From: a virus
Virus record (IMG/VR): IMGVR_UViG_3300002131_000066
Span: 1 to 31,378 of that record
Direction: 5' to 3' (one strand)
Length of the DNA: 31,378 nucleotides
Positions 15,316 through 31,378 of the stretch are shown here, in pieces (the stretch's first letter is position 1; each line of letters starts with the position of its first letter). The notes under the pieces are model-generated. The model ran no database searches. It saw nothing but the letters and a program-made list of their open reading frames with translations, and was not told the origin of the DNA. Position numbers and translations under genes: made by a program.

Positions 15316-15319
15316 ATAC
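15312..15319 (+). promoter_or_regulatory. Putative T4-type late promoter (ATAAATAC)
   Basis: ATAAATAC overlaps the stop codon of the giant gene and stands 16 bases before the next start codon, followed by a TAGGA ribosome-binding sequence (15324-15328). T4-like phages use TATAAATA as the whole late promoter. The first base differs here (A at 15311), and in AT-rich DNA chance matches occur, so support comes mainly from the repeated pre-gene placement (also 19921 and 22402). Confidence 0.5.
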
Positions 15320-18003: not shown

Positions 18004-18004
18004 C

Positions 18005-19915
18005 ATGAGTTATCAACTAAACAAAACAGACGGTACATTATTGCTAGATCTAATCGATGGTCAAATTGATACTGTTAGTACAAACCTTACATTAGTTGGT
18101 AGAAACTATTCAGGGTACGGCGAATATTTTAACGAAAACTTTATTAGACTATTAGAAAATTTTAATAATAGTGCTGCACCGAGTAATCCTTTAACAGGAC
18201 AACTTTGGTGGGACAGTAGTGATCAGCGATTAAAGGTGTATGATGGAACACAATGGAAGGCTAGTGGAGGCCCAATTGTACAAAATACTCGTCCACAAAT
18301 GGTTGCAGGCGATGTGTGGATTGATAATCTAAACAATCAAGTATATGCATTTGACGGTACTGACTTAATGCTTATGGGGCCGCAATATACAGTAACTCAA
18401 GGCAAAAGTGGATTTGAAATAGGTAGTATTCTTGATTCACAAAGCCGTTCACGCACTGTTGCATATTTGTATGTAGGTGGAATATTATCGGCAGTAATTA
18501 GTAATATCGAATTTACTCCAATTTATGCACAGCGCATTTTAGGCCTTGTTACAGCATCAAATCCTAACGGTATTATTAGAGTTGGAATGAACATAATTGA
18601 TACTGCTAATTTTAAATTTAGAGGAATTGCAGATTCTGCAAACTCTCTTGTTACTGCTGGTGGCGTAGTTAGAGCTGCTGACAGTTTCCTTCCATCAACT
18701 GCAAATGGTATTACAACAGGCACACTAACAATTCAAAACTCAGGCGGTTTAACAATTGGCCTATCACAAAACAACGTACAAAAAGTTGTAGGTCCTAGAT
18801 TTTATATTGAAAACCAACTTACTGATCACGATTTAAGTTTACGGGTTAAGTCAAGTACGTTTGGTGCTATTTCAGTTGATGCAATTTATATTGATGCAAG
18901 TACAGCTAGAGTTGGTATTTTTACAACTAATAGACTTCCGGAATACACCTTAGACGTTGCAGGCGATCTGCGTGTTACTGGCGATTTAATTGTTGAAGGC
19001 GCAAGAGTAGCATTAGATGTTCAAACACTAAGAGTTGAAGATAAAGTTATTGAAATTGGCGTACTAAATGATAGTACAGAACTTACAGATGCACAAGCAG
19101 ATGCTTCGGGTATACAGGTTAATAGCAAAAACGGTAGCAAAGATATTCTTTGGAAGGTTGCTACTAATGCATTTACTTCAAATGTAAACTTTGATTTATT
19201 AAACAGTACACAAAGTTACAAAATTGGCGGCGTTGATAAACTTACAAATACTAGCTTAGTAAATATTACTAAAGCACTAGACTTAGATCAAATCGGTACA
19301 TTAACAGTATTGCAAGTTGATGAAATTAACATTAACGGTAAAGTTATTAGTTCTACTAATGATATGGCAATTACATCAACTAACGGTATTGCAATTACTG
19401 CAGGCGCAGCTATTAATATAACTGATGCCCAAAAAATTACTGGTGTGGGAAAAGCAGTTAGTGCAAGAAAAGCAGCTGAATTATCTGCAACAGAATCAAC
19501 AGCTGGTACAGTCACAACAAAAGAATATGTAGATGAAGAAATAGTAACAGAAACTATTGTATTCAGTATGGATATTACTGGACTTGGAACTGATGCAACA
19601 CTACAAAATGCAGTAGCAGGATATTTAGATGATTTATATCCAGCAGCAACTCTAAACACTAATAAAATTGCACGTATACATACAACATCTTATGCTGGAG
19701 CAACAGTGCAAGGTGTAGATGTTGAAAGTGCAAAAAATGTAAGTTATATTGCTGTCGATAGTAATGGAACTCAGAACGAATCAGTAGTTCAAGACGTTAG
19801 CTTTGCTGCCGAAGGTGCAAGCGGACTAGTTGTTCTTACACCGGCTAGAACACTAATGACATATAAATCTAACGGAACTACTTGGGCATACCAGTCAATA
19901 ACTGTGTATCCGTAA
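18005..19915 (+). CDS. Tail fibre protein, second paralogue (636 aa)
   Basis: The N-terminal ~225 residues follow those of both neighbouring fibres: LTLVGRNYSGYGEYFNENFI, then LTGQLWWDSSDQRLKVYDG and GDVWIDNLNNQVYAFDG. A later shared segment includes RVGMNIIDTANFKFRG. The centre has LDVAGDLRVTGDLIVEG and VQTLRVEDKVIEIG, a pattern common in trimeric fibre shafts. A possible helical region follows (KAVSARKAAELSATESTAG, then TVTTKEYVDEEIVTE). The C-terminal ~115 residues (from FSMDITGLGT) lack the collar and peptidase-like ends of its paralogues, and I do not recognise that tip. ATG lies 1 base after the upstream stop with GGAG at 17995-17998, implying coupled translation. Fibre identity is secure; receptor is unknown. 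Confidence 0.82.
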   Translation: MSYQLNKTDGTLLLDLIDGQIDTVSTNLTLVGRNYSGYGEYFNENFIRLLENFNNSAAPSNPLTGQLWWDSSDQRLKVYDGTQWKASGGPIVQNTRPQMVAGDVWIDNLNNQVYAFDGTDLMLMGPQYTVTQGKSGFEIGSILDSQSRSRTVAYLYVGGILSAVISNIEFTPIYAQRILGLVTASNPNGIIRVGMNIIDTANFKFRGIADSANSLVTAGGVVRAADSFLPSTANGITTGTLTIQNSGGLTIGLSQNNVQKVVGPRFYIENQLTDHDLSLRVKSSTFGAISVDAIYIDASTARVGIFTTNRLPEYTLDVAGDLRVTGDLIVEGARVALDVQTLRVEDKVIEIGVLNDSTELTDAQADASGIQVNSKNGSKDILWKVATNAFTSNVNFDLLNSTQSYKIGGVDKLTNTSLVNITKALDLDQIGTLTVLQVDEININGKVISSTNDMAITSTNGIAITAGAAINITDAQKITGVGKAVSARKAAELSATESTAGTVTTKEYVDEEIVTETIVFSMDITGLGTDATLQNAVAGYLDDLYPAATLNTNKIARIHTTSYAGATVQGVDVESAKNVSYIAVDSNGTQNESVVQDVSFAAEGASGLVVLTPARTLMTYKSNGTTWAYQSITVYP

Positions 19916-19920
19916 AAACG

Positions 19921-19928
19921 ATAAATAA
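19921..19928 (+). promoter_or_regulatory. Putative T4-type late promoter (ATAAATAA)
   Basis: ATAAATAA lies in the 40-base gap between two fibre genes, 27 bases before the next ATG and upstream of a strong AGGGG ribosome-binding site (19941-19945). An overlapping TATAAT (19929-19934) lacks a convincing -35 element, so the phage late-type reading is preferred. Confidence 0.5.
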
Positions 19929-19955
19929 TATAATAGCACTAGGGGTTACATAATA

Positions 19956-21437
19956 ATGGCATATGCAATAGACAGATATAACAACACACTGTTAACTACA
20001 GTGGAAGATGGTACAGTTGACCAAACAACTGACCTTAAATTCATCGGTAAAAACTACGCAGGTTACGGCGAAATACAAAATGAAAACTTTTTGTTCTTGC
20101 TTGAAAACTTTAGCGGAGCAAATCAGCCAAGTAGACCAATTAGCGGTCAAGTTTGGTTCGACAGCGGCACAAGTAAATTAAAATTTTATGATGGCGCAAA
20201 GTGGCGCACTACAGGCGGCGCCGAAGTTGGCGCAACAGAGCCAACAGGATTAGCTACTGCTGATTTTTGGTGGGATACCGGTAATGATCAGTTATATGTG
20301 TACAACGGTACAAACTTTGTACTTATAGGGCCACAGAACGCAGGCGAAGGCGTAACCCAAATGCAAAGCCTTGAAGTTCTTGATACTACAAGTGCTACAA
20401 GAGGATTAATTGCCTCTGTTATTGAAGACGAAACTATATTTGTTATAAGCCCAACGCAATTTGATTTAAATGCAAGCCAAACAGCACTAATTGCACAAGG
20501 ATTCGACAGAATTTATAAAGGTATTACACTAAGAAATACTAAATTAGCAACAGCCGGTGTTACTAGTACTACTGATAGATTCCATGGCACTGCAACAAAT
20601 GCTGATAAATTAGGTGGTATTGCTGCTGCAAACTTTGTACAAACTGGTGTAGGTAACACAATATTTACAAGCTCAGTTGAAATACCAGACGATGGTATAT
20701 TAATTGGCGATTCAAACGATTTCCAACTTATAGTTGATACAAATGGGTTTGATGGAGTTATTCAAAACGTTACTACTAACGGTGTAATTAAGTTTAAAGT
20801 TACTAGCGGCGCAGGCGCATTAACACATGTTGCAACAGTGCAATCAACTGGAATAGTTCCAGCTGCTGATAATACATTTACATTAGGATCTGCTAGTTTT
20901 GGATTTTCAAATGTGTATGCAGCGACCTTTACAGGCGAAGCAACTAAAGCAGCTACATTAAGAGTTGGTAGCGATTTCCGCAGTGCAAGTTCAAGTGCAA
21001 CAAACAATACAGTTGCAGTTAGAGATGCAACAGGTAACATTGCTGCAAATCTATTCCAAGGTACTGCAACACAAGCACGTTATGCTGACTTAGCAGAAAA
21101 ATATACTACAGCAGAAGAATTAGCACCTGGCACAGCAGTAGCAGTGTGTAAATGCGAAGATCATGAAGTAGAACCTGCAACATCAAGTAATCATTGCATT
21201 GGAGTTGTTTCAACAAATCCAGCAATTATGATGAATAGTGAAGCTGAAGGGCAATATATAGCACTTAAAGGACGAGTTCCTGTAAGAGTTAAGGGTGCAG
21301 TTGTTAAGGGTCAAGCAATATATGCAATGGCAGACGGCGTAGCCACTACACTTGCAACAACAGCATTAGTTGGAGTTGCTTTAGAAAGTAACAGCGATGA
21401 GGGTGAAAAATTAGTCGAATGCGTACTTAAGGTATAA
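19956..21437 (+). CDS. Tail fibre protein, third paralogue, with G2-peptidase-like C-terminal domain (493 aa)
   Basis: The N-terminus repeats the attachment region of the two preceding fibres: LKFIGKNYAGYGEIQNENFL, then ISGQVWFDSGTSKLKFYDG and ADFWWDTGNDQLYVYNG. The middle has shaft-like segments (FTLGSASFGFSNVYAATFTG; ATGNIAANLFQGTATQARYA). From about residue 375 the end reads ADLAEKYTTAEELAPGTAVA, then IGVVSTNPAIMMN and ALKGRVPVRVKGAVVKGQAI. This resembles the 'DLAE.Y......PGtvv......ivGVvStnPa..m.....GrVpv.v.G' end of many phage fibres and the Peptidase_G2 type. I cannot show that autocleavage residues are present. The gene has its own late-type promoter and AGGGG site. Confidence 0.82.
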   Translation: MAYAIDRYNNTLLTTVEDGTVDQTTDLKFIGKNYAGYGEIQNENFLFLLENFSGANQPSRPISGQVWFDSGTSKLKFYDGAKWRTTGGAEVGATEPTGLATADFWWDTGNDQLYVYNGTNFVLIGPQNAGEGVTQMQSLEVLDTTSATRGLIASVIEDETIFVISPTQFDLNASQTALIAQGFDRIYKGITLRNTKLATAGVTSTTDRFHGTATNADKLGGIAAANFVQTGVGNTIFTSSVEIPDDGILIGDSNDFQLIVDTNGFDGVIQNVTTNGVIKFKVTSGAGALTHVATVQSTGIVPAADNTFTLGSASFGFSNVYAATFTGEATKAATLRVGSDFRSASSSATNNTVAVRDATGNIAANLFQGTATQARYADLAEKYTTAEELAPGTAVAVCKCEDHEVEPATSSNHCIGVVSTNPAIMMNSEAEGQYIALKGRVPVRVKGAVVKGQAIYAMADGVATTLATTALVGVALESNSDEGEKLVECVLKV

Positions 21438-21446
21438 GGATCCATC

Positions 21447-22370
21447 ATGGCAGATATTACAGCAGCACGAATTAACAATTTACAATCTAGTATTGCACTT
21501 ATATTAGGCACAGGTTCTGGACAAAACGGTTACGGACAGCCTGTTACTAGTTTACCAGTTAACAACACCGGAGACGTAGTTGAAGCTGCGGATATTAACA
21601 CAATATATGCAGACATTCTTAAAGCAAGAGTTCACCAAGTAGGCGCAGGCGATATTGGCATTGCTGAAGTTGTACAAAATCTTAATACAGTTGCTGAGGC
21701 AACAAGTACATTTGTTAGTAATGCTGGTATCACTAGTATCGACCCAGATGGATTTAAGAAAGGCATTTTAGATTTTGAAGGCCTTATGGCACAAGTCCAA
21801 GCGGATAAAGCAGTAATGCATCCTACACAAGCTGCATTAGAACCTGCAATATCAAGTGCTAGATCTAGTACATGGAATGGTTTGATTTATCACGAAGTAA
21901 CTGCTACATTTAGTTCAGCCAACGCCAGACGCTTTTTCTTTAATACAGGCGGCGAAATTAGAATAAGTGCTAATAATACTGGAGCAGTAACTCCTAAAGG
22001 ATTAGACTGGAATCAATTATGTTCGCAAGTAGGAACAATTAAATTTAGTGCAGAAACAACAGTTTCAACTACTGGCGGTGGCTCGTCGATTGGCAATTAC
22101 GATTTAACAAGTGCGTATCAAGATATATACACAAAAGTAGGCAGCGGTACATATAGTGCAGTATACGCTGGTAATATTTATACTGTTAAAGCACGTTCTG
22201 ATATTGATACACGTATTATTTTTAGAATTGAATTTAACGATGTAGTATTTGACAACAATATTGATAATAACGTTGACGGTAGACTTGAAAGTATAATACA
22301 ACATTATCGTGCAAATAGCGGAGTTACAGTAGCTGCTCCGTCATATTTTAATACACACACATTGGCATAA
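21447..22370 (+). CDS. Structural/adhesin protein, short member of a second fibre family (307 aa)
   Basis: The N-terminus (MADITAARINNLQSSIALIL, then GTGSGQNGYGQ and ADINTIYADILKARVHQVG) matches that of the next gene. Both then carry a similar beta-rich region: STWNGLIYHEVTATFSS, ARRFFFNTGGEIRISA, DWNQLCSQVGTIKFSAET and SSIGNYDLTSAYQDIY. I recall proteins of this type downstream of fibre genes in marine T4-like phages, without a known function. There is no signal peptide or membrane segment. AGGA overlapping the upstream stop (21437-21440) sits 6 bases before the ATG, so it is translated with the fibre gene. It may be the core form of which the 745-residue neighbour is an extended version. 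Structural role is inferred from context and paralogy. Confidence 0.72.
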   Translation: MADITAARINNLQSSIALILGTGSGQNGYGQPVTSLPVNNTGDVVEAADINTIYADILKARVHQVGAGDIGIAEVVQNLNTVAEATSTFVSNAGITSIDPDGFKKGILDFEGLMAQVQADKAVMHPTQAALEPAISSARSSTWNGLIYHEVTATFSSANARRFFFNTGGEIRISANNTGAVTPKGLDWNQLCSQVGTIKFSAETTVSTTGGGSSIGNYDLTSAYQDIYTKVGSGTYSAVYAGNIYTVKARSDIDTRIIFRIEFNDVVFDNNIDNNVDGRLESIIQHYRANSGVTVAAPSYFNTHTLA

Positions 22371-22401
22371 TCAGACTCTTTTGTATATAGAATATTTTTA
22401 A

Positions 22402-22409
22402 ATAAATAC
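22402..22409 (+). promoter_or_regulatory. Putative T4-type late promoter (ATAAATAC)
   Basis: In the 62-base gap before the 745-residue adhesin gene, ATAAATAC (with TTAA just before it) lies 23 bases before the ATG, with an AAGAGA ribosome-binding sequence between them. This is the same octamer as at 15312. Confidence 0.55.
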
Positions 22410-22432
22410 TTTGATAATAAAAGAGATGATGA

Positions 22433-24670
22433 ATGCCAACAACAATACTAGCAAGTAGATATAATACACTTCGTAATCAAGTAAATTTAGTACTTGGTAC
22501 TTCTGCTGATATTAGTGCTACTTATGGCTACGGCCAACCTTTTAGCACAAGCAGTGTAGTTGGTACACGAACAGCACCGACTGTAGCAGATGCAGATAAA
22601 ATATCTGCACAAGATTACGAAGATTTATATATTGATTTAATTAGGACACGTTCACATCAAGTTGGCGCATCGGTTGCAATTGATGAATTTGTAATCGGCG
22701 ATTACGAGGTTAATACTGCAACTGCTGATAAAATTGAAGAAGCATATATTTTAGGATTAGAATCTTTAGCAACTAGTATTGCTACTGATAGATTAACTGT
22801 TGCTCCTGCTAACTTAACTATAGCTAGTTTACCAGCAGCAAGCAGCACTCGTCCTGCAAGCGCAGGTACATGGAACGGAACACTTAGTCATATTTTTACT
22901 GTAACATTTCCGTCTGTTGTTGCTAGGAGACATTTTTTTAACGCTGGCGGTGAAATTCGATTTAGTGCGTCAGTTGATTATACAGGAAGTCAAGCTAAAA
23001 CAGTAGATTGGCAATCAATTTTAAGCATCATGGGAACAACTAGTTTCAAAGCAGAATCAACAGTTAATAATGTAGGAATTGGCTCTGGATCTAGTATAGG
23101 CAATTATGATCTTAATTCGACATATCAATTAGTTTATTCTACAACCGGCGGCGCAGCCTATTCTCGCAATAGTTATAATATATATGCTACTAATGAAACA
23201 ACATTAGATGGTACATCTGCTATAAAATTTAAAGTAGAGTTTACAGACGGACTTCCTAATGATCTTACTTTTGGTATTGATGAAGCAGTATTTGGTACAT
23301 TTAATAGTATTATATCAACAGCAACTCCTAGCAGTCAAATATCTATTAACGGAACAGTGCATGATGCAGTTATTATTGATTCTCCGCCAGTAGGAGCAAC
23401 CATAAGAACATTATCAGGTGTTCTTACACCGAGTTATAATATTAGCGGACCTGCAAACGTTAACGAAGGTGCAAGTTCAGCATTTACAATTACAACCACT
23501 AATGTTTCAAACTCTACAACGGTATATTGGTCAACAAATGCAGTATCCGGCGGCCAGCCAACTGGCACAGATTTTACCGATGGAGTAACATCTGGTACAG
23601 TTACTATTAATAACAACACCGGTACAATTGCACGAACACTTAGCAATGACTTGACAACAGAAGGAGTTGAAAGTTTTTCAATTAGCTTACGGTCGGGCTC
23701 AGTTTCTGGAACAATACTAGCAACTAGCGGCATTGTTGCTATTGGTGATACTAGCACAACACCGGCAGCGTCACCTCCTCCCCCAGATCCGAGTCCGCCT
23801 CCGGGTCCAACTCCTACAGAATTTACTTTCTCAGTCAGTCCTGCTTCTGACATGAACTTTAATATACCGATATCTCAAGGCACTGTTAGCTATGCATATA
23901 CAGTAACTTGCAGCAGTGGAAGCGGATCGATCACAGTTCAAGAAATAAGTAGACCTAGTCAGTGGAATGTATACGTAGACGGAGTAAGTAGTCCAGGAGC
24001 ATCAACTACTTTCTCAATGAGCGCCGGCCAGAGTCGTTCGGTTATCCTTGGCATAGAACCATTAACTGTTGGCACAGGCACTGGCGGATTTGCCTTTTTA
24101 AAAGCTGAAGGTGACGGCCAGCGGTTTGATAGAAGTTGGTCAGGAACTGCAAGGCCGGCAGAACCGAGTATTAGCTTTACTCCGAGCTCTGGATATATCA
24201 ATGATACAACTTATACACTATCATGGGATGATGCTGATGCAGGAGCAAGGACAGTTACACTAAATTCTCCTGAAGGACCGACATATAATACTACTGATCC
24301 TAGCGGGTCTACATCAAGCACATTGGGTATAGTCGGTACATGGAGTGCAACAATTGATACTAGTGGCGGAAGCGCATCTGCATCAGTAACCGTAAGTTCT
24401 CCTCCTCCGCCTCCTCCTGTAATACCGGCACCTAGTATTAGCTTTACACCGAGCTCTGGAACTATTAATAGTACCGTATATACTATATCTTGGAATGCTA
24501 ATGGAGCATCATCAACAAGTGTAGTTATTACAGGGCCAGATGGCGGAACTATTCCTTTCAGCGAACCTTCTGGTAGTATATCAAGTACATTGGGTATAGT
24601 TGGTACATGGAGTGCTAGTATATCAACCGCCGGCGGATCAGCAAGCGATAGTGTTCAAGTAAATCCATAA
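22433..24670 (+). CDS. Long adhesin of the second fibre family with Calx-beta-like and Ig-like domains (745 aa)
   Basis: Residues 1-~305 are homologous to the preceding 307-residue protein (YNTLRNQVNLVLGTS; RTRSHQVGAS; ARRHFFNAGGEIRFSA; SSIGNYDLNSTYQLVY). A Calx-beta-like domain follows at about 334-441 (ISGPANVNEGASSAFTITTT, then TVYWSTNA and TEGVESFSISLRSG). Next come a proline linker (about 444-463), a beta domain (about 463-570, SVSPASDMNFNIP), and two Ig-like repeats at about 579-655 and 668-745, separated by a second proline stretch (PPPPPP). Multi-domain ends of this kind in phage fibres often bind host surface glycans; that is family knowledge, not shown here. The ATG at 22433 is chosen because nearby ATGs at 22426 and 22429 are in other frames. 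Confidence 0.8.
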   Translation: MPTTILASRYNTLRNQVNLVLGTSADISATYGYGQPFSTSSVVGTRTAPTVADADKISAQDYEDLYIDLIRTRSHQVGASVAIDEFVIGDYEVNTATADKIEEAYILGLESLATSIATDRLTVAPANLTIASLPAASSTRPASAGTWNGTLSHIFTVTFPSVVARRHFFNAGGEIRFSASVDYTGSQAKTVDWQSILSIMGTTSFKAESTVNNVGIGSGSSIGNYDLNSTYQLVYSTTGGAAYSRNSYNIYATNETTLDGTSAIKFKVEFTDGLPNDLTFGIDEAVFGTFNSIISTATPSSQISINGTVHDAVIIDSPPVGATIRTLSGVLTPSYNISGPANVNEGASSAFTITTTNVSNSTTVYWSTNAVSGGQPTGTDFTDGVTSGTVTINNNTGTIARTLSNDLTTEGVESFSISLRSGSVSGTILATSGIVAIGDTSTTPAASPPPPDPSPPPGPTPTEFTFSVSPASDMNFNIPISQGTVSYAYTVTCSSGSGSITVQEISRPSQWNVYVDGVSSPGASTTFSMSAGQSRSVILGIEPLTVGTGTGGFAFLKAEGDGQRFDRSWSGTARPAEPSISFTPSSGYINDTTYTLSWDDADAGARTVTLNSPEGPTYNTTDPSGSTSSTLGIVGTWSATIDTSGGSASASVTVSSPPPPPPVIPAPSISFTPSSGTINSTVYTISWNANGASSTSVVITGPDGGTIPFSEPSGSISSTLGIVGTWSASISTAGGSASDSVQVNP
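24167..24670 (+). repeat. Tandem DNA-level duplication of an Ig-like module, 267-base period
   Basis: Two copies start at 24167 and 24434. The stretch 24170-24193 matches 24437-24460 with one mismatch in 24 bases, and 24314-24348 matches 24581-24615 with two mismatches in 35. The period is exactly 267 bases (89 codons), and the intervening parts have diverged more. Both copies encode PSISFTPSSG at the start and SSTLGIVGTWSA near the end. Confidence 0.85.
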
Positions 24671-24681
24671 CCATTCTCTTC

Positions 24682-24710
24682 TTGACAAATTGTTAGTTTC
24701 AATATATACT
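24682..24710 (+). promoter_or_regulatory. Strong sigma70-type promoter upstream of the modification cassette
   Basis: TTGACA (24682-24687) is a perfect -35 box. It is separated by exactly 17 bases from TATACT (24705-24710), which matches five of six consensus -10 bases. The expected start of transcription is near 24717, about 20 bases before the ATG at 24737, leaving room for the AGGAG site at 24725-24729. No ATAAATA element is present in this gap. In T4-like phages this kind of promoter is read by unmodified host polymerase and is usual for early genes. Confidence 0.7.
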
Positions 24711-24736
24711 AGTAATAATAAACTAGGAGTTTAACT

Positions 24737-25087
24737 ATGGATGAACGATTAGAAAAAGCATTGAACTTTTCTAACTACATGCTAACACTTAATAATCAAA
24801 AAAGATTGATAGCAGAAAAATATCAAGAAGAACTAATTTATTTTTACAACGGGTCTCAGTTTAGTGTTACACGAGAATTAATTACATTTGTAAACTTAAT
24901 GATAACTGCTGATCAAGACGATATTGTTATAACTGATGACAATAGTATTCCGTGTTTTATTGAAAATTTGTCAGAATTTTACGATGAAATTGTAAGTGTA
25001 TACATGCTGGCATCTAATAGATATCATGCAGAATATTCAAAATTAAAAGCAAACCGTAGCGTAGAGAAATTAGTTGATTATGAGTAA
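24737..25087 (+). CDS. Small conserved phage protein of unknown function (116 aa)
   Basis: The protein is acidic and mostly helical in appearance: an N-terminal helix region (MDERLEKALNFSNYMLTLNN then QKRLIAEKYQEELIYFYNG), a middle helix (SVTRELITFVNLMI), a short strand with DDNSIPCFIENLSEF, and a C-terminal helix ending NRSVEKLVDYE. I recall similar small proteins in other marine T4-like phages but know no function. There is no metal-binding or enzyme motif. It is the first gene after the sigma70-type promoter and has a good AGGAG site 7 bases before its ATG. It overlaps the next gene by 8 bases, so it is co-translated with the glycosyltransferase-like gene. A regulatory or adaptor role is conceivable but has no support in the sequence. 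Confidence 0.72.
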   Translation: MDERLEKALNFSNYMLTLNNQKRLIAEKYQEELIYFYNGSQFSVTRELITFVNLMITADQDDIVITDDNSIPCFIENLSEFYDEIVSVYMLASNRYHAEYSKLKANRSVEKLVDYE

Positions 25088-25931
25088 AGGTGCATTTTTA
25101 ATTGCACGAAATAACGGCCATATTGACTATGTAAAACAGGCAGTATTTCTTGCAAGGCGAATAAAAAAATATTTAGACGTTCCTGTAACTATTGCTACTG
25201 ACAGTGTTGATTATTTAGAATCAACTTTTGGTGTAGCAGATTTTGATAGAGTCATTAGGCTAGAAAATACGCAAGATAGTAATTTACGTTATTATTTTGA
25301 CGGTACTTTATCTAAACAAACAGCTAGTTTTAAAAATAACAACCGTGCAAGTGTTTATGATCTTTCTCCGTACGACGAAACACTGTTATTAGATACCGAT
25401 TATATTATTTCAAACGAGTTATTAAAGTCAACTTTTGACTCAACATTTGACTTTATGTTATATAAGAAATCTAGTGACGTTGCAAACGTGCGCGACAAAA
25501 GAGAATTTGATAAAGTAAGCAACACTGGGGTTGATTTTTATTGGGCTACTGTTGTATTTTTTAGAAAAACAGAAACTAATAAAATATTCTTTGACCTTGT
25601 TGCGCATATAGAACAAGAATGGAATCATTATAGACGAGTTTACCAAATAACTTCTAGTTTATTTAGAAACGACTATGCTTTTAGTATTGCAATTCATATA
25701 ATGAATGGGTTTGTACCTGGAGATTTTGCACAGCAATTGCCAGGTAGTATGATGTATACCACTGATAAAGATGTATTATGGCAGCTTAATGACGACGAAA
25801 TGATGTTTTTAGTAGAAAAGAAAGAATACTTAGGCGAATATACTGCACTAAAGACGTCAGGACAAACTATTCATGTTATGAATAAATCTAGTCTCAATAG
25901 AATAATTGATCAGGAGTTTGCAAATGACTAA
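25080..25931 (+). CDS. Glycosyltransferase-like protein, DxD type, first of a pair (283 aa)
   Basis: The N-terminal strand-helix (MSKGAFLIARNN; YVKQAVFLARRIKKYLDVPV; TIATDS) and the motif LLLDTDYIIS (D105 and D107) have the layout of GT-A glycosyltransferases related to GT8. In that fold the DxD binds the metal and sugar nucleotide, and such enzymes move a sugar from a nucleotide donor to an acceptor. Donor and acceptor cannot be read from the sequence. There is no signal peptide or membrane segment, so it should act in the cytoplasm. I take the ATG at 25080, inside an 8-base overlap (ATGAGTAA) with the previous gene, rather than the TTG at 25074. It is similar to the next protein over its length (K-G; NYV/DYV; TD; DTD), suggesting an old duplication. 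Confidence 0.7.
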   Translation: MSKGAFLIARNNGHIDYVKQAVFLARRIKKYLDVPVTIATDSVDYLESTFGVADFDRVIRLENTQDSNLRYYFDGTLSKQTASFKNNNRASVYDLSPYDETLLLDTDYIISNELLKSTFDSTFDFMLYKKSSDVANVRDKREFDKVSNTGVDFYWATVVFFRKTETNKIFFDLVAHIEQEWNHYRRVYQITSSLFRNDYAFSIAIHIMNGFVPGDFAQQLPGSMMYTTDKDVLWQLNDDEMMFLVEKKEYLGEYTALKTSGQTIHVMNKSSLNRIIDQEFAND

Positions 25932-26766
25932 AGGAATTGTAGTTCTTGCACAAAATAACACAACTGACAATTATGTAGAACAGGCGTGTTTATTGGCAAT
26001 GAGTTTGAAGCTGCACAACACCGTTCCTATTAGTATAGTTACTAATGATATAGTGCCGGACGAATATTGTCATTTGTTTGATCAGATTATTCCTATTCCG
26101 TGGGGTGATTCTGCAGCCTCATCAGATTGGAAAATTGAAAATAGATGGAAGTTGTATTATGCTACTCCATATAGAGAAACAATTATAATGGATACTGATA
26201 TGTTAGTGTTACAAAACATTGACACTTGGTGGGATTTCTTATCAAAATACGAACTATTTTTTACAAGTAAGGTTTTAACTTATAGAGGCACGCCTGCTAA
26301 TACTAGTTACTATAGAAGAACGTTTATTGATAATAATTTACCAAATTTATTCAGCGGATTACATTATTTTAAGAAGTGCGATTTTGCACATAAGTTTTAT
26401 AACTTGTTAGATATAGTAGTAAAAAACTGGAAACCGTTTTATGAACAACATCTAGAAGCAACGCATCGACCTAAACATATGAGCATTGATGTGTGCGCAG
26501 CAATTGTTACACGTATATTAGATTGCGAATCTAAAATTACAAACACAGTGGTTACGTACCCTAGTTTTACTCATATGAAACCGCATTGTCAAGACTGGCA
26601 CGAAGTTTACATTAATTGGCAAGATCAAATTGGAGTTTATATTTCAAAAGACGGAAGTTTAAAAATTGGAAATTATGCACAAACAGGAATTTTACATTAT
26701 ACTGAAAACGACTTTTTGACAAAGACTCCTGTTGTAGAAATATATAGGAGTTTGTTAAATGTCTAA
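25924..26766 (+). CDS. Glycosyltransferase-like protein, DxD type, second of a pair (280 aa)
   Basis: MTKGIVVLAQNN, YVEQACLLAMSLKLHNTVPI and SIVTND repeat the start of the previous protein. The predicted metal-binding motif is IIMDTDMLVLQ (D90, D92), preceded by RWKLYYATPYRETI, as in GT8-like enzymes where the acceptor-side helix comes before DxD. Further on, LFSGLHYFKK and a late LHYTEN supply a histidine in the place where GT8 proteins have a metal-binding H. No membrane segment is seen, so a soluble cytoplasmic enzyme is likely. ATG at 25924 is chosen over the TTG at 25906 because AGGAG (25912-25916) is 7 bases upstream and the overlap with the previous stop is again 8 bases. The acceptor is unknown. 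Confidence 0.72.
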   Translation: MTKGIVVLAQNNTTDNYVEQACLLAMSLKLHNTVPISIVTNDIVPDEYCHLFDQIIPIPWGDSAASSDWKIENRWKLYYATPYRETIIMDTDMLVLQNIDTWWDFLSKYELFFTSKVLTYRGTPANTSYYRRTFIDNNLPNLFSGLHYFKKCDFAHKFYNLLDIVVKNWKPFYEQHLEATHRPKHMSIDVCAAIVTRILDCESKITNTVVTYPSFTHMKPHCQDWHEVYINWQDQIGVYISKDGSLKIGNYAQTGILHYTENDFLTKTPVVEIYRSLLNV

Positions 26767-27424
26767 TCTACACGATTTAATTAAAAATTTGCAAGTTGGT
26801 GTAATTAGTACTAATTCATATGTATACTACGATAAAGACTCTGGCAAAATACATAAGATTAGCTCAACAAATACACCTGATGAGAATTTTGAAATTGTTG
26901 CAATCCCAAATAAAGAAGTAAATCCTATTCTTACAGGAGAAAAGCGTATAGACGAGTTTGTTATATTTTATGATGTTAGTTTAAAACAAATACGTCTAAA
27001 GCCTGTTACCTTTACTGGAATCCAATATACTGCATCTAATACATGTTATCAGTTACCTATTACAAATTCTGTTCTGTGTCACCAACTGCCTGTTGTTAGC
27101 ACTAACAAGAATTCTGCTATTGACGATAATGATATTGTTGTGCAACAAGATATTGTTAAAAAACAATGGAATATTTTAATTAACCCGCATACTAAGAACT
27201 TCTTAATTAAAAATACTCACGGCTATGATGAGACATTAAATTTTAGTGTTACATCAAAGCACGATCCAAATATATTTTATAGAAGTTTAGAATGCACAGT
27301 AGGAGATTTATTGTCTGACGATATTACAAGTATACCGTTCAAATATGAAACAGAAAGTAGTGTAGATGACGTAAGTATATATACAGCAAAATACTTTGAC
27401 AACTATGTACACGAGGTTATTTAA
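26759..27424 (+). CDS. Unknown protein in the glycosyltransferase cluster (221 aa)
   Basis: I do not recognise this protein. It appears mostly beta-structured, beginning with a short helix (MSNLHDLIKNLQVGV) and a strand pair NSYVYYDKDSGKIHKISSTN. There follow GEKRIDEFVIFYDVSLKQIR and KKQWNILINPHTKNFLIKN, which look like related strand repeats. The C-terminal part has FSVTSKHDPNIFYRSLECTV. It has no signal peptide, membrane segment or visible catalytic motif. The ATG overlaps the previous gene by 8 bases, with AGGAG (26746-26750) 8 bases upstream. Its own stop shares a base with the next ATG (TAATG), so it is firmly part of the operon. A structural or accessory protein whose surface is modified by its neighbours is one possibility. 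Confidence 0.68.
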   Translation: MSNLHDLIKNLQVGVISTNSYVYYDKDSGKIHKISSTNTPDENFEIVAIPNKEVNPILTGEKRIDEFVIFYDVSLKQIRLKPVTFTGIQYTASNTCYQLPITNSVLCHQLPVVSTNKNSAIDDNDIVVQQDIVKKQWNILINPHTKNFLIKNTHGYDETLNFSVTSKHDPNIFYRSLECTVGDLLSDDITSIPFKYETESSVDDVSIYTAKYFDNYVHEVI

Positions 27425-28338
27425 TGGCAAAATTTAAACCAATCGACTGCGATATCATCTACCTTAGTTACGATGAACCAAACGCAGAAAAAAACTACGC
27501 AGACTTACTTACTAAAGTGCCGTGGGCAAAACGGGTACACGGCGTAGAAGGTAGTGATGCAGCGCACAAAGCATGTGCTAGACTAAGTGAAACAGATCGA
27601 TTTATTACTGTTGACGGTGACAATCGTATTAAGGAAGAGTTTTTAAATCAAGAAATTGATTTTGATGAGCATGCTGATTTAAGCAGTAGTGTAATTAGTT
27701 GGGCTGGAAAAAATGTTATCAATGGATTGATCTACGGCAACGGTGGATTAAAATGTTGGCCTAAAGAATATGTACTCAAAATGAAAACACATGAGAATGC
27801 TGATCCGAATAATCAACATGCCCAAGTTGATTTTTGTTGGGATACAAAGTATATACAAATGGAAGGCACATACTGCGATGTGCATAACAACTCTACTGCA
27901 CAACAAGCATGGCGAGCAGGTTTCCGTGAAGGTGTCAAGATGGCACTGGACCGCGGCTTGCGTGTTACTAAAGAAGAATTTGTAAAACTGCATTGGAAGA
28001 ATCTACACAGACTTTATATTTGGCTCATGGTAGGAGCAGATGCAGAAAACGGTAACTGGGCTATACTTGGATCAAGAGCTGGATTATACATGACAATGTG
28101 TACAGACTGGGACTTTGTTAATGTTCGCGATTTTGAATATCTAAATGATTTATGGAAAGTTTCTTTTGAGTCAATTGAAGATGTTGAGTATGAAATAGAA
28201 GAATATGGTATTAAATTAATTGATCAACTGGATATTCCTATTGCTGAAGTGCCGTTAAATGCGCAACAAAGTAAATTCTTTAAAACAATTTACCAAAATC
28301 CTATGCGCATGTCAAACAAGTTTATGGAAAAAGAATGA
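27424..28338 (+). CDS. DxD glycosyltransferase-like protein, family 'SYDEP', long paralogue (304 aa)
   Basis: The N-terminal strand DIIYLSYDEPNAEKNYADLL, then WAKRVHGVEG and FITVDGDNRI (D64, D66), resembles a GT-A-type nucleotide-sugar domain with a DxD-like metal site. A second conserved block is NGLIYGNGGLKCWPKEYVLK. A third, WRAGFREGVKMALD, leads to HRLYIWLMVGADAENGNW and AILGSRAGLY. All blocks recur in the 224-residue protein two genes on. The long form has an extra C-terminal ~70 residues after DFEYLNDLW. Similar proteins, as I recall, occur in marine myoviruses as glycosyltransferase-like or hypothetical. ATG shares one base with the upstream stop, with GAGG 7 bases upstream. Activity is inferred from fold-like features only. 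Confidence 0.62.
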   Translation: MAKFKPIDCDIIYLSYDEPNAEKNYADLLTKVPWAKRVHGVEGSDAAHKACARLSETDRFITVDGDNRIKEEFLNQEIDFDEHADLSSSVISWAGKNVINGLIYGNGGLKCWPKEYVLKMKTHENADPNNQHAQVDFCWDTKYIQMEGTYCDVHNNSTAQQAWRAGFREGVKMALDRGLRVTKEEFVKLHWKNLHRLYIWLMVGADAENGNWAILGSRAGLYMTMCTDWDFVNVRDFEYLNDLWKVSFESIEDVEYEIEEYGIKLIDQLDIPIAEVPLNAQQSKFFKTIYQNPMRMSNKFMEKE

Positions 28339-29594
28339 AAAAAGATACACTATGTACAATACCTTGGATGCATTTAAATTTTGAACCAAATGGCAAAGTT
28401 GTTCCGTGTTGCTTAACTTCTTCGCACAACTATTTTGCAGGAGATCTTAATACAGAAAGTATTCAAGAAATTTGGAATAGTGACAACATGAAAGCTCTTC
28501 GAAAAGAGATGCTTAATGGTGTTGAACCAAAGATATGTGACAAGTGTTTTAATAAAGAAAAAGTTACGCCTGAAAGTGGAAGATTTTTTAATAACAGAGA
28601 TTTTCCAGAAGTATTAGAAAAAATTCCAGAAATAACATTAGAAGATGGTACGTGTACTGAAATGGATTTAAAATATTGGGATTTTAGATTTAGTAACTTG
28701 TGTAATTTTAAATGTCGTAGCTGCGGCCCTCGGTATAGCAGTGCTTGGGTACCTGATGCTAAAAAACTAGGTTACACAGATCAAGAAAAAGTATGGAGCA
28801 TCGGATCAGTTGATGATCAAACTAATTTTGATTTCCTCAAAGACCAAATTGATGTTGTAAAGCGTATATATTTTGCAGGCGGCGAACCTTTATTGATGCC
28901 CGAGCATTGGCAAATTTTAGACATGTTAGTCGAAAAAGAAAGATTTGATGTTAAGTTAAGTTACAACACTAATGCATCTGTTTTGTCTTACGGTAAGAAA
29001 CATATTCTTGATTACTGGAGTAAATGGAAGTTTGGAAAATTAGAAGTGTGGCCAAGTATTGACGAGATAGGCGAAAGAGCAGAATTAATAAGATCAGGAA
29101 CAGTATGGTCTAAGGTTGAAGAAAATTTAATAGAACTTACAAAGTATGAAAATATTATATTACGACCTGGTCTTACTATAGGTGCTTGGAATGTGCATCG
29201 ATTGCCCGAAATTATCAATCATTTAATTTCTTTAGGAGTAATCAAAGGTCCTAATCCAAAAATAAAAGGTATTAAGTATAATAACTTCTTTATTAATTTA
29301 TTAGAACACCCTGTGCATTATCATGTAAGCATTTTATCTGATGAATATAGAGAACAAATATCTGCAAAGTTAAATGCATTTATTATAGAATATAACGAAA
29401 AGTACAACACAGATATTGCACCGACGTTTGTACACATTTTATCTGAACTAAAGAAACCTTTTAATTTAAAAGCTGCAAAAAAATTCTTAGAATTAACTAA
29501 TCAGTTAGATAAGTTACGCAATGAAGATACTTTTAAAGTATTGCCAGAAATGGAAGATGTTAAACGTAGTGTAGAGAGGCACATAAATGTATGA
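28335..29594 (+). CDS. Radical SAM enzyme with N-terminal twitch-type Cys domain (419 aa)
   Basis: The radical SAM cluster motif is C123-NFK-C127-RS-C130 (in SNLCNFKCRSCG), the CxxxCxxC that holds the catalytic 4Fe-4S cluster. FAGGEPLL (G182-G183-E184) is the SAM-binding GGE motif. Ahead of it, residues 1-75 carry C7, C25, C26, C68 and C71 (LCTIPWMHL; VPCCLTS; ICDKCFNKE), with GDLNTESIQEIWNSD between. These match the SPASM/twitch-type auxiliary cluster domain, here N-terminal rather than C-terminal as in most such enzymes. Proteins with this N-terminal arrangement are known as 'twitch domain-containing radical SAM' proteins; their substrates are mostly unknown. The start overlaps the previous stop by 4 bases (ATGA). 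It lies between two paralogous DxD proteins, suggesting it acts on a sugar, glycan or peptide that they handle. Confidence 0.85.
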   Translation: MKKDTLCTIPWMHLNFEPNGKVVPCCLTSSHNYFAGDLNTESIQEIWNSDNMKALRKEMLNGVEPKICDKCFNKEKVTPESGRFFNNRDFPEVLEKIPEITLEDGTCTEMDLKYWDFRFSNLCNFKCRSCGPRYSSAWVPDAKKLGYTDQEKVWSIGSVDDQTNFDFLKDQIDVVKRIYFAGGEPLLMPEHWQILDMLVEKERFDVKLSYNTNASVLSYGKKHILDYWSKWKFGKLEVWPSIDEIGERAELIRSGTVWSKVEENLIELTKYENIILRPGLTIGAWNVHRLPEIINHLISLGVIKGPNPKIKGIKYNNFFINLLEHPVHYHVSILSDEYREQISAKLNAFIIEYNEKYNTDIAPTFVHILSELKKPFNLKAAKKFLELTNQLDKLRNEDTFKVLPEMEDVKRSVERHINV

Positions 29595-30261
29595 TATTGT
29601 TTTCATAAGCTATAATGAACCTACTGCTGATGCAAATTATGCAGCACTAAAGGAAAGATTTCCAATAGCTAAACGAGTTCACGGTGTAAAAGGCATTCAT
29701 CAAGCACACATTAAAGCAGCAAAAAAGTGCTTTACTAAAATGGTATGGATTGTTGATGCAGATGCAGTAATTAAAGAAGATTTTAACTTTGAATATGAAG
29801 TGCCCGATCATCAATTAGATCACGTACACGTTTGGCGCAGTCAAAATCCGATTAATGATCTAGTCTACGGGTACGGCGGCATTAAGTTATTTCCACGAAA
29901 AATGACAATTGATATGGATGTTAGTAAGCCTGACATGACTACAAGCATTAGTAATAATTTTGTATTAATGCCGTATATTGCAAATGTTACTGCATTTAAT
30001 ACAGGCGAGTTTGAAACTTGGAAAAGTGCATTTAGAGAATGTTGTAAACTTGCAAGCAAAGTTATTGATAGACAAAAGTCAGAAGAAACTGATAAAAGAT
30101 TGCACACATGGTGTACAATAGGAGAAGATCGTCCATTTGGTAGCTATGCTATTCAAGGTGCAAAAGCAGGCGCAGCATATGGCGCAAGAAATCGAGGCAA
30201 TGCAGAAGCACTTAAACAAATTAACGACTTCGATTGGTTAAAGGAAAAGTTTAATGAGTAA
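29587..30261 (+). CDS. DxD glycosyltransferase-like protein, family 'SYDEP', short paralogue (224 aa)
   Basis: This is a shorter homologue of the 304-residue protein. The blocks correspond in order: DIVFISYNEPTADANYAALK; AKRVHGVKG; VWIVDADAVI (D57 and D59, the DxD-like motif); NDLVYGYGGIKLFPRK; ETWKSAFRECCKLASK; and RLHTWCTIGEDRPFGSYAIQ then GAKAGAAYG. It ends shortly after the last shared block, so it lacks the C-terminal extension of its paralogue. Start ATG overlaps the radical SAM stop by 8 bases, with GAGAGG (29574-29579) 7 bases upstream. A GT-A-like sugar transfer role is the best guess; the family has no function I can name with certainty. Confidence 0.62.
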   Translation: MYDIVFISYNEPTADANYAALKERFPIAKRVHGVKGIHQAHIKAAKKCFTKMVWIVDADAVIKEDFNFEYEVPDHQLDHVHVWRSQNPINDLVYGYGGIKLFPRKMTIDMDVSKPDMTTSISNNFVLMPYIANVTAFNTGEFETWKSAFRECCKLASKVIDRQKSEETDKRLHTWCTIGEDRPFGSYAIQGAKAGAAYGARNRGNAEALKQINDFDWLKEKFNE

Positions 30262-31087
30262 TGAAAGTACTTTAAGCTGGGTAAGAGGTCTATCAGAATA
30301 TTTAAGATTTGTTGATGATAAAGAAGCAAAAAAGTTTATTGATTTTTTAGAACAAGCTATGTATGCAGATTCGCCAGTAATTGATGATACTAATCAAGCA
30401 GGAATGATTGAATTTATAAGTGTATTAAGAAAGTTTACACCAAACCCAATTTTTGATATATTTCATAAGTATTACAGATTAGGTAATAACCCATTATTGC
30501 TACAAGATGCATTTAGTAGAGGACAGGTATTAAGTAAAATCTGGTTAGCTGAAGAATTATTAAAAATTAAAAATAATTTTGAAATGATTCATGTACATGC
30601 AGGATGGTTTGGACAGCTACGTCTTTACCTTGATGCAGCAAATATCTCTTATAATAAAATGAGAATTTTTGATATTGATCCAGCTGCACTAGAAGTGAGC
30701 GACAAAATTTTTAATAATGATAAAATTAAAGACTTTGAAGTAAAATCTGCAAGTTTAGATATTACAAATCCTACTTGGTTATTTAGAACAGGATGCGAAT
30801 ATAATATAACTGCTACATCTAAAGAAAAAACAATACCTGATCTTGTAGTTAATACTAGCGCAGAACACTTTAACGAAGATTGGTATACTAAATTTACTAT
30901 TAGAACTCAAAGCAGTGATCCTCTTTTTGTAATTCAAACAAACAATTTATTTGAGGTAGAAGAACACATAAACTGTGTACACAGTATAAATGAAATGTTA
31001 ATTAAATTTCCAATGACACGGATCGAATATGCAGGCGAAAAAGAACTATTTGGTTATAAAAGATTTATGTTGATTGGTAGACCATGA
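30254..31087 (+). CDS. Methyltransferase-like protein (277 aa)
   Basis: An N-terminal helical region of ~100 residues is followed by a Rossmann-like order: MIHVHAGWFGQLRLYLD (motif I position, V114-Q121), RIFDIDPAALEVSDKIF (D140/D142, the acidic residue after the second strand that would bind the SAM ribose), and DLVVNTSAEHFNEDWY (about residue 198). This is the layout of class I SAM-dependent methyltransferases. Motif I is atypical: it has HAGWFG in place of the usual G.G.G, so SAM binding is not assured. It overlaps the previous gene by 8 bases (ATGAGTAA) with AAGGA 8 bases upstream. In the cassette it could finish a sugar or peptide modification begun by its neighbours. A non-methylating nucleotide-binding role is an alternative. 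Confidence 0.55.
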   Translation: MSNESTLSWVRGLSEYLRFVDDKEAKKFIDFLEQAMYADSPVIDDTNQAGMIEFISVLRKFTPNPIFDIFHKYYRLGNNPLLLQDAFSRGQVLSKIWLAEELLKIKNNFEMIHVHAGWFGQLRLYLDAANISYNKMRIFDIDPAALEVSDKIFNNDKIKDFEVKSASLDITNPTWLFRTGCEYNITATSKEKTIPDLVVNTSAEHFNEDWYTKFTIRTQSSDPLFVIQTNNLFEVEEHINCVHSINEMLIKFPMTRIEYAGEKELFGYKRFMLIGRP

Positions 31088-31305
31088 ATATAGATGATTT
31101 AAGTTTAAGAGAATTGCAAAAGGAAAGCGCTCGTGCGCTAAGTACTATAGACGCAACAAATAATAACATATGGCAGTTTAACAAGCAAGCACATCATAAT
31201 AGCCAAAATTGGTATACAGCAGTTATTAAATGGTATGTAGAACAGTACGGCGACTTACCGAGTAAAGTTGGCCCAGGTAAGGATGTAAAATTAATATTGG
31301 AATGA
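31084..31305 (+). CDS. Small hypothetical protein (73 aa)
   Basis: I do not recognise this protein. It is a short soluble protein with an N-terminal helix (LSLRELQKESARALSTIDAT) and a tryptophan-rich middle (NNIWQFNKQAHHNSQNWYTA, then VIKWYVEQYGDLPSKVG). There is no signal peptide or zinc motif. The ATG overlaps the stop of the methyltransferase-like gene by 4 bases (ATGA) and only a weak ribosome-binding sequence is visible, so translation probably depends on coupling. The close packing argues for a real gene. Its role may be accessory to the cassette. Confidence 0.6.
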   Translation: MNIDDLSLRELQKESARALSTIDATNNNIWQFNKQAHHNSQNWYTAVIKWYVEQYGDLPSKVGPGKDVKLILE

Positions 31306-31307
31306 CA

Positions 31308-31378
31308 ATGAACGTAATTGAAATTTTAAAAGAAAATAAAAAATCTATAATTGATCAAGCAGTAGAGTGGATTAAAAA
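31308..31378 (+). CDS. Start of a further gene, cut by the window edge
   Basis: ATG at 31308 lies 2 bases after the previous stop and opens a frame without stop to the window end (23 codons: MNVIEILKENKKSIIDQAVE then WIK). The start reads as a helix. Nothing can be said of its function from so short a piece. It continues the same operon and strand. Confidence 0.5.
   Translation, partial: MNVIEILKENKKSIIDQAVEWIK

What the first reader, a model, noticed from the sequence alone, without database searches (positions are those of the whole stretch)
24737..31378. Phage operon joining four DxD glycosyltransferase-like proteins, a radical SAM enzyme and a methyltransferase-like protein
Four predicted GT-A-like proteins in two paralogous pairs, one twitch-type radical SAM enzyme, one atypical methyltransferase-like protein and three unknown proteins are packed without gaps, right after the tail-fibre genes. 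Seen in the sequence: order, overlaps, DxD and CxxxCxxC motifs. Inferred: they build or modify a glycan or glycopeptide, either on the phage's own fibres or on the host surface, for example to alter adsorption or block superinfection. I know of no described phage pathway with this exact set.
Basis: partly seen in the sequence, partly recalled or inferred. Interest (0 to 1): 0.75.

Follow-up and report, generated by a model that had tools for sequence, protein, structure and literature searches.

The report
Early sugar-enzyme operon behind phage fibres
Large uncultured T4-like aquatic phages carry, right behind their tail-fibre genes, a fixed five-gene block with three sugar-transferring enzymes plus a changing tail of radical-SAM and methyl-transfer enzymes, usually switched on early in infection, so it probably re-decorates the host cell surface rather than building the virion.

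Summary
All nine genes exist, in order, tightly packed. The first DxD pair is glycogenin/GT8-like, the second pair has a GT-A-type fold, the radical SAM enzyme belongs to NCBIfam NF033640 (N-terminal twitch), and the methyltransferase-like protein has a moderate-confidence class I methyltransferase fold. In ~240 related loci five of these genes, o1-GT8a-GT8b-o4-GT2, form an almost invariant block behind fibre genes. With o1 as independent query, successive links hold 80/80, 76/76, 73/73 and 61/61. The rest is a variable tail: radical SAM genes follow nearly every block, but five blocks lack them, so they are add-ons. New here: the block starts with its own sigma-70-type promoter (window 24682-24710), shared by 64 of 90 relatives against 3 expected; adjacent fibre genes carry T4 late motifs. 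The same promoter type precedes gp55, a pre-late gene, in 15 of 17 carrying genomes tested, including the window's own phage. The block is thus probably expressed early, which favours a host-surface target over the virion. A minority of relatives have a late promoter instead. No cultured phage searched carries the block. Best reading: fibre-linked, early, glycan-remodelling island; confidence moderate. Substrate unknown.

The parts
24682..24710 (+). sigma-70-type promoter TTGACA-N17-TATACT (11/12), 26 nt before o1; AGGAG ribosome-binding site at 24725-24729
   Evidence: conserved in 64 of 90 distinct o1 upstreams vs 3.2 in shuffles
24737..25087 (+). o1: 116-aa soluble protein of unknown function, first gene of the invariant block
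   Evidence: followed by GT8a in 69/69 and 80/80 loci; no Pfam/PHROG/NCBIfam family
25074..25931 (+). GT8a: glycogenin/GT8-like glycosyltransferase, DTD motif (ATG start probably 25080)
   Evidence: profile A1 hits glycogenin at 1.3e-9, DxD aligned
25906..26766 (+). GT8b: second glycogenin/GT8-like glycosyltransferase, DTD motif (ATG start probably 25924)
   Evidence: follows GT8a in 78/78 and 76/76 loci
26759..27424 (+). o4: 221-aa protein of unknown function, the fastest-diverging member of the block
   Evidence: no family match
27424..28338 (+). GT2 (G5): GT2-like GT-A enzyme with VDGD motif, the most conserved member of the block
   Evidence: follows o4 in 78/79 and 61/61 loci
28335..29594 (+). 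radical SAM enzyme with N-terminal twitch domain (NF033640)
   Evidence: 361.5 bits vs cut-off 170; twitch domain matches BtrN; invariant cysteines
29587..30261 (+). G7: second GT2-like GT-A enzyme, variable tail
   Evidence: AlphaFold model pLDDT 89.5, GT-A-type fold
30254..31087 (+). MT8: class I methyltransferase-like protein, variable tail
   Evidence: AlphaFold model pLDDT 69.8; Foldseek top hits are nearly all SAM methyltransferases; motifs conserved
31084..31305 (+). o9: 73-aa protein, companion of MT8 (next gene in 23 of 65 cases)
31302..31378 (+). start of the next array gene (316 aa, unknown), cut by the window end
   Evidence: same-phage record, L003 12968-13918
15949..24670 (+). 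five fibre/virion-type genes upstream of the block (15949-18003, 18005-19915, 19956-21437, 21447-22370, 22433-24670)
   Evidence: first three match PHROG tail/fibre or virion families; order conserved in relatives
22402..22408 (+). T4-type late promoter motif ATAAATA before the last fibre gene (also at 15312-15318 and 19921-19927)
   Evidence: motif before 64/147, 25/90 and 24/30 distinct upstreams of the three fibre groups

Best explanation
The region is the start of an early-transcribed glycan-remodelling island of a large T4-like phage, genetically tied to the adjacent fibre genes. Its fixed core is o1-GT8a-GT8b-o4-GT2; its variable tail adds radical SAM enzymes, more GT2-like enzymes, a methyltransferase-like protein and sometimes a UDP-sugar dehydrogenase. 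Proposed mechanism: host RNA polymerase reads the block from its sigma-70 promoter soon after infection. The soluble GT-A enzymes transfer sugars from nucleotide sugars, in the cytoplasm, onto a host envelope glycan precursor (LPS or capsule type). Radical SAM and methyltransferase enzymes tailor those sugars (for example oxidation, deoxygenation, epimerisation or methylation). The new surface no longer fits the fibres encoded next door, so the infected cell is closed to superinfection or to wasted adsorption of progeny. Shown: gene order, folds or families of the enzymes, promoter sequences, co-occurrence, absence of transmembrane segments. Inferred: early timing (from sequence, no RNA data), glycan as substrate, host surface as target, and the exclusion benefit.
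For: Block strictly syntenic behind fibre genes. GT8a/b match glycogenin; G5/G7 have a GT-A-type fold with invariant DxD. The radical SAM twitch domain matches BtrN, known as an aminosugar-pathway dehydrogenase (function from general knowledge). UDP-glucose/GDP-mannose dehydrogenase in 16 of 66 arrays with enough sequence. Sigma-70 promoter before o1 in 64/90 distinct upstreams vs 3.2 shuffled, in 31 of 53 GT8a clusters at 70% identity. The same promoter type before gp55 in 15 of 17 carrying genomes, including the window's own; fibre genes have late motifs instead. T4-like early = sigma-70, late = NATAAATA is established (PMC2984593, PMC1524935). All nine proteins lack a transmembrane stretch. 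Host-surface change by phage LPS-type genes has been proposed for P-SSM2 (PMC2984593).
Against: In 11 of 53 clusters the block has a late motif instead, so early timing is not essential to its function. Early-made enzymes can persist and still act on virions. Promoter class is inferred from sequence. Bacterial homologues of the radical SAM enzyme that were inspected sit beside unrelated genes, not in polysaccharide clusters. No substrate, host or nucleotide sugar is known. Some tail genes (UDP-sugar dehydrogenase) more often have late motifs.
Confidence: 0.45

Rival explanations
1. Virion glycosylation: the soluble GT-A enzymes and tailoring enzymes decorate the phage's own fibres or other virion proteins, changing adsorption or hiding epitopes, as in mycobacteriophages or chloroviruses.
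For: Invariant position behind fibre genes. GT8a/b resemble glycogenin, a protein-glycosylating enzyme; structural neighbours of G7 include peptide S-glycosyltransferases ThuS/SunS and a PBCV-1 capsid glycosylation enzyme. 11 of 53 clusters have a late promoter. o4 diverges as fast as the adjacent fibre.
Against: Most clusters, including the window, have a sigma-70 promoter like gp55, while the fibre genes have late motifs.
Confidence: 0.25
2. DNA hypermodification: the GTs and radical SAM enzymes build a sugar-bearing modified base that protects phage DNA from restriction.
For: Early expression would fit; phages of the T4 group glycosylate hydroxymethylcytosine, and radical SAM enzymes occur in some hypermodification pathways (general knowledge).
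Against: No TET/JBP match above cut-off in 19 records and a thymidylate synthase/dCMP hydroxymethylase family match in only 2 of 19 (most records are fragments). Position behind fibre genes has no obvious link to DNA.
Confidence: 0.07
3. Peptide or protein modification of a RiPP-like kind: SPASM/twitch radical SAM enzymes modify a small protein such as o1 or o9, which the GTs then glycosylate.
For: Weak similarity of the radical SAM enzyme to several peptide maturases; small conserved proteins o1 and o9 in the arrays.
Against: o1 and o9 show no cysteine-rich core or obvious leader/core layout; the only solved-structure match of the profile is BtrN, not a peptide maturase; UDP-sugar dehydrogenase in the arrays.
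Confidence: 0.08
4. No joint function beyond cargo: the tail is a hypervariable island of unrelated auxiliary genes, and only the five-gene block is a real unit.
For: Tail content varies strongly and five blocks end without radical SAM genes.
Against: 64 of 66 distinct arrays with enough sequence carry a radical SAM gene, on average 3.3 (sample biased because some loci were chosen by radical SAM similarity), and tail genes are mostly same-strand and overlapping.
Confidence: 0.15

Closest known systems
Host recognition cluster of pelagimyophages (PMC7029224)
   Same: Island in the structural region of marine T4-like phages with fibres, several GTs (GT8 most common) and radical SAM cassettes; proposed host surface modification
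   Different: Described as large, non-syntenic and hypervariable; the invariant o1-GT8a-GT8b-o4-GT2 block, its dedicated promoter and its occurrence in jumbo-type relatives are not reported in the passages read
T4-like phage TARA_ERS488813_N000010 with 12 radical SAM genes (PMC5332604)
   Same: T4-like marine phage rich in radical SAM genes
   Different: Paper discusses them among Fe-S-related genes; no GT block described in the passage read
LPS gene clusters of cyanophage P-SSM2 (reviewed in PMC2984593)
   Same: T4-like marine phage with surface-glycan genes proposed to alter the host surface against other phages
   Different: 24 LPS biosynthesis genes in two clusters; none of the block proteins queried match any phage record by tblastn
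Vibrio phages K566 and K567
   Same: Only annotated phages matching the radical SAM enzyme (24.6% identity); several radical SAM genes close together
   Different: No GT8-like, GT2-like, o1 or o4 homologue in the stretch examined
gtr serotype-conversion operons of temperate phages
   Same: Phage GTs changing the host surface glycan
   Different: gtr operons use membrane proteins (flippase, bactoprenol GT, membrane GT); here all nine proteins are soluble

Membership tests
NF033640 twitch-domain radical SAM protein | score above curated cut-off | tested here: met
   361.5 bits vs 170
NF033640 twitch-domain radical SAM protein | CxxxCxxC core and N-terminal twitch cysteines | tested here: met
   C123/C127/C130 and C7/C25/C68/C71 invariant in 27 sequences
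CAZy GT8 (GT8a, GT8b) | sequence similarity to a characterised member with DxD aligned | tested here: met
   profile A1 vs glycogenin-2, 1.3e-9, DxD aligned
CAZy GT8 (GT8a, GT8b) | match to the Pfam GT8 model | tested here: not met
   no GT8 model match in any of 23 members; therefore called GT8-like, not GT8
GT2 family (G5, G7) | GT-A fold with DxD | tested here: met
   model pLDDT 89.5; Foldseek top 50 all glycosyltransferases; best Z 11.7 over 135 residues, rmsd 2.7; D57/D59 invariant; IspD-type nucleotidyltransferases score nearly as high
GT2 family (G5, G7) | Pfam GT2 gathering score | tested here: not met
   best member E 0.0075, window G7 13.9 bits vs 27; therefore GT2-like
Class I SAM-dependent methyltransferase (MT8) | Rossmann methyltransferase fold | tested here: inconclusive
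   Foldseek hits nearly all methyltransferases at E about 1e-5, but model pLDDT only 69.8 and no family match
T4-like phage | gp23 capsid and gp55 late sigma factor | tested here: met
   gp55 in the same-phage record G001 and 19 other records; gp23 in several relatives, not in G001, a fragment
Pelagimyophage host recognition cluster | lies between VrlC and neck gene gp14 | not tested
   a giant virion gene and fibres lie upstream; gp14 not sought
Phage DNA glycosylation pathway | enzyme making the hydroxymethylated base | tested here: inconclusive
   none by TET/JBP above cut-off; PF00303 in 2 of 19 records; most records incomplete
gtr serotype-conversion operon | membrane flippase and membrane GTs | tested here: not met
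   maximum 19-residue hydropathy 1.37 among nine proteins

The most novel reading that the evidence does not exclude
A widespread, undescribed module of uncultivated T4-like phages in which fibre (receptor-binding) genes are physically coupled to an early-expressed enzyme block that remodels the receptor those fibres use, with twitch-type radical SAM enzymes as sugar-tailoring enzymes in a viral glycan pathway.
Probability: 0.35. Interest if true: 0.78.

Novelty: new variant of a known kind. Interest (0 to 1): 0.6.

Why it matters
Why aquatic T4-like phages carry so many glycosyltransferases and radical SAM enzymes is an open question. The conserved five-gene core, its independence from the variable tail, and a promoter of the pre-late class turn a vague 'hypervariable island' into a defined unit with testable timing and target. 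If the target is the host surface, it would link receptor binding and receptor change in one locus; radical SAM chemistry on viral glycans would be new.

Tried and rejected
tblastn of o1, GT8a, GT8b, o4, G5 and MT8 against 50,697 phage records gave no match (G7 and o9 not queried). Pfam, PHROGs and NCBIfam gave no family for o1, o4, o9. Bacterial homologues of the radical SAM enzyme were examined for polysaccharide neighbours; those inspected by eye sit beside unrelated genes. The idea that the block simply follows the fibre genes into the late programme was tested with ATAAATA counts and dropped for most clades when the sigma-70 promoter appeared. Radical SAM as an obligate part of the unit was rejected. 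Within 15-31 kb of the window the promoter scan alone is not above chance (67 found, 63.3 expected); the support comes from conservation. A first reading of gp55 promoters picked wrong genes on minus-strand loci and was replaced.
Full report
WHAT WAS CHECKED. The nine ORFs of the finding are all present on the + strand between 24737 and 31305, each overlapping or abutting the next. Upstream lie a 5,104-aa open frame and fibre/virion-type genes. The record is a 31,378-base virus fragment. A 66,455-base record of the same phage (100% identity) shows that the array goes on past the window with four more radical SAM-family proteins and unknown proteins.

WHAT THE PROTEINS ARE. A profile of the first DxD pair finds glycogenin in the PDB at 1.3e-9 with the DxD aligned; no Pfam GT8 match is reached, so they are called GT8-like. 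The second pair (G5, G7) gave a confident AlphaFold model (pLDDT 89.5); its best Foldseek matches are glycosyltransferases and in the structural re-alignment the best chain is B4GALNT1 (Z 11.7, 135 residues, rmsd 2.7), with IspD-type nucleotidyltransferases close behind. The invariant D57/D59 favour glycosyltransferase over nucleotidyltransferase. The radical SAM protein scores 361.5 bits against the NF033640 cut-off of 170; its twitch domain matches BtrN. MT8 folds, at moderate confidence, like class I methyltransferases. o1, o4 and o9 match nothing. None of the nine has a transmembrane stretch.

THE CONSERVED UNIT. From 80 loci found with the radical SAM protein and 80 with G7, neighbours were clustered and orders counted: o1 is followed by GT8a in 69/69, GT8a by GT8b in 78/78, GT8b by o4 in 75/80, o4 by a GT2-like gene in 78/79. 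GT8b falls into 56 clusters at 90% and 35 at 70% identity. With o1 as an independent query the same links hold in 80/80, 76/76, 73/73 and 61/61 visible cases, and a fibre-family gene precedes o1 in 69 of 80. What follows is variable: GT2-like, radical SAM of several subfamilies, MT8, an unknown family, UDP-glucose/GDP-mannose dehydrogenase, a QueC-like protein, an aspartyl-hydroxylase-like protein. Of 80 core blocks, 72 have a radical SAM gene within 14 genes, five end clearly without one, three are cut. These samples are the top relatives of each query, and two of the three queries are tail genes, so frequencies of tail genes are biased upwards.

PROMOTERS. The 66-nt gap before o1 holds TTGACA-N17-TATACT (24682-24710). 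Among 90 distinct o1 upstream stretches 64 carry a sigma-70-type site of at least 10/12 (57 at 11 or more) against 3.2 in dinucleotide shuffles; 14 carry the T4 late motif ATAAATA; none carries both. Fibre genes show the reverse: late motif in 64/147, 25/90 and 24/30, sigma-70 near chance level. The inner genes of the block (GT8a, GT8b, o4) have neither above chance. Grouped by GT8a at 70% identity, 31 of 53 clusters are sigma-70, 11 late, 11 neither or mixed.

WHAT THE PROMOTER MEANS. In T4-like phages early genes use sigma-70-type promoters and late genes NATAAATA read by gp55 (PMC1524935; PMC2984593). This was tested inside the group. In one 137-kb relative the few strong sigma-70 sites lie before o1, a GT2-like gene, gp55, an SbcD-like (gp47-type) nuclease and one unknown, and late motifs before baseplate, fibre and other virion genes. 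gp55 was then located in 20 of 25 carrying records; 15 of 17 readable upstreams have the sigma-70 site, mostly 12/12, including the window's own phage. gp55 must act before late transcription, so the block is most likely pre-late too, although it sits among late genes. This is inference from sequence.

INTERPRETATION. Pre-late expression, solubility, glycan enzymes and fixed linkage to fibres fit enzymes that change the host envelope glycan. Glycosylation of the virion remains open, because early enzymes can persist and a minority of clades use a late promoter. DNA hypermodification is not supported by a search for base-hydroxymethylating enzymes, but most records are incomplete. In close pairs G5 is the most conserved (92%) and o4 (54%) and the adjacent fibre (62%) the least.

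KNOWN AND NEW. GT- and radical-SAM-bearing islands in T4-like marine phages are described (PMC7029224; PMC5332604) and host-surface change has been proposed. Not found in the searched literature: the invariant five-gene block and its pre-late promoter. No annotated phage record matched the block proteins queried; only two Vibrio phages match the radical SAM enzyme. The capsid protein of a carrying record is closest to jumbo T4-like phages such as Vibrio phage 2.275.O.

Noticed in passing
L083, L084, L101: The whole block, or most of it, lies in contigs of bacterial MAGs (Rickettsiales MED657, twice; Rhodobacteraceae NAT686); these look like phage contigs binned by mistake, or infections of those hosts.
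   Followed up: partly
window 1-15315: A single open frame of at least 5,104 aa whose start matches a PHROG virion structural family.
   Followed up: no
window 22433-24670: Last fibre-type protein has proline-rich linkers and repeated domains at its C-terminus.
   Followed up: no
window 26759-27424 and relatives: o4 diverges as fast as the adjacent fibre protein although its neighbours are conserved, as if it met the same changing partner.
   Followed up: partly
o1 upstreams of L005, L009, L051, L052, L181, L214 and others: Promoter class of the same block has switched from sigma-70 to T4 late type in a minority of clades.
   Followed up: yes
L327-L328 (record G017, about 1-42 kb): The array runs to the end of the 137-kb record with about 40 genes, nearly all on one strand, including many radical SAM genes.
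   Followed up: no
L002 14971-21707: Vibrio phage K566 has several radical SAM genes close together with unknown proteins and no GT block.
   Followed up: partly
window 31084-31305: o9, a 73-aa protein, is the next gene after MT8 in 23 of 65 cases and is highly conserved; function unknown.
   Followed up: no
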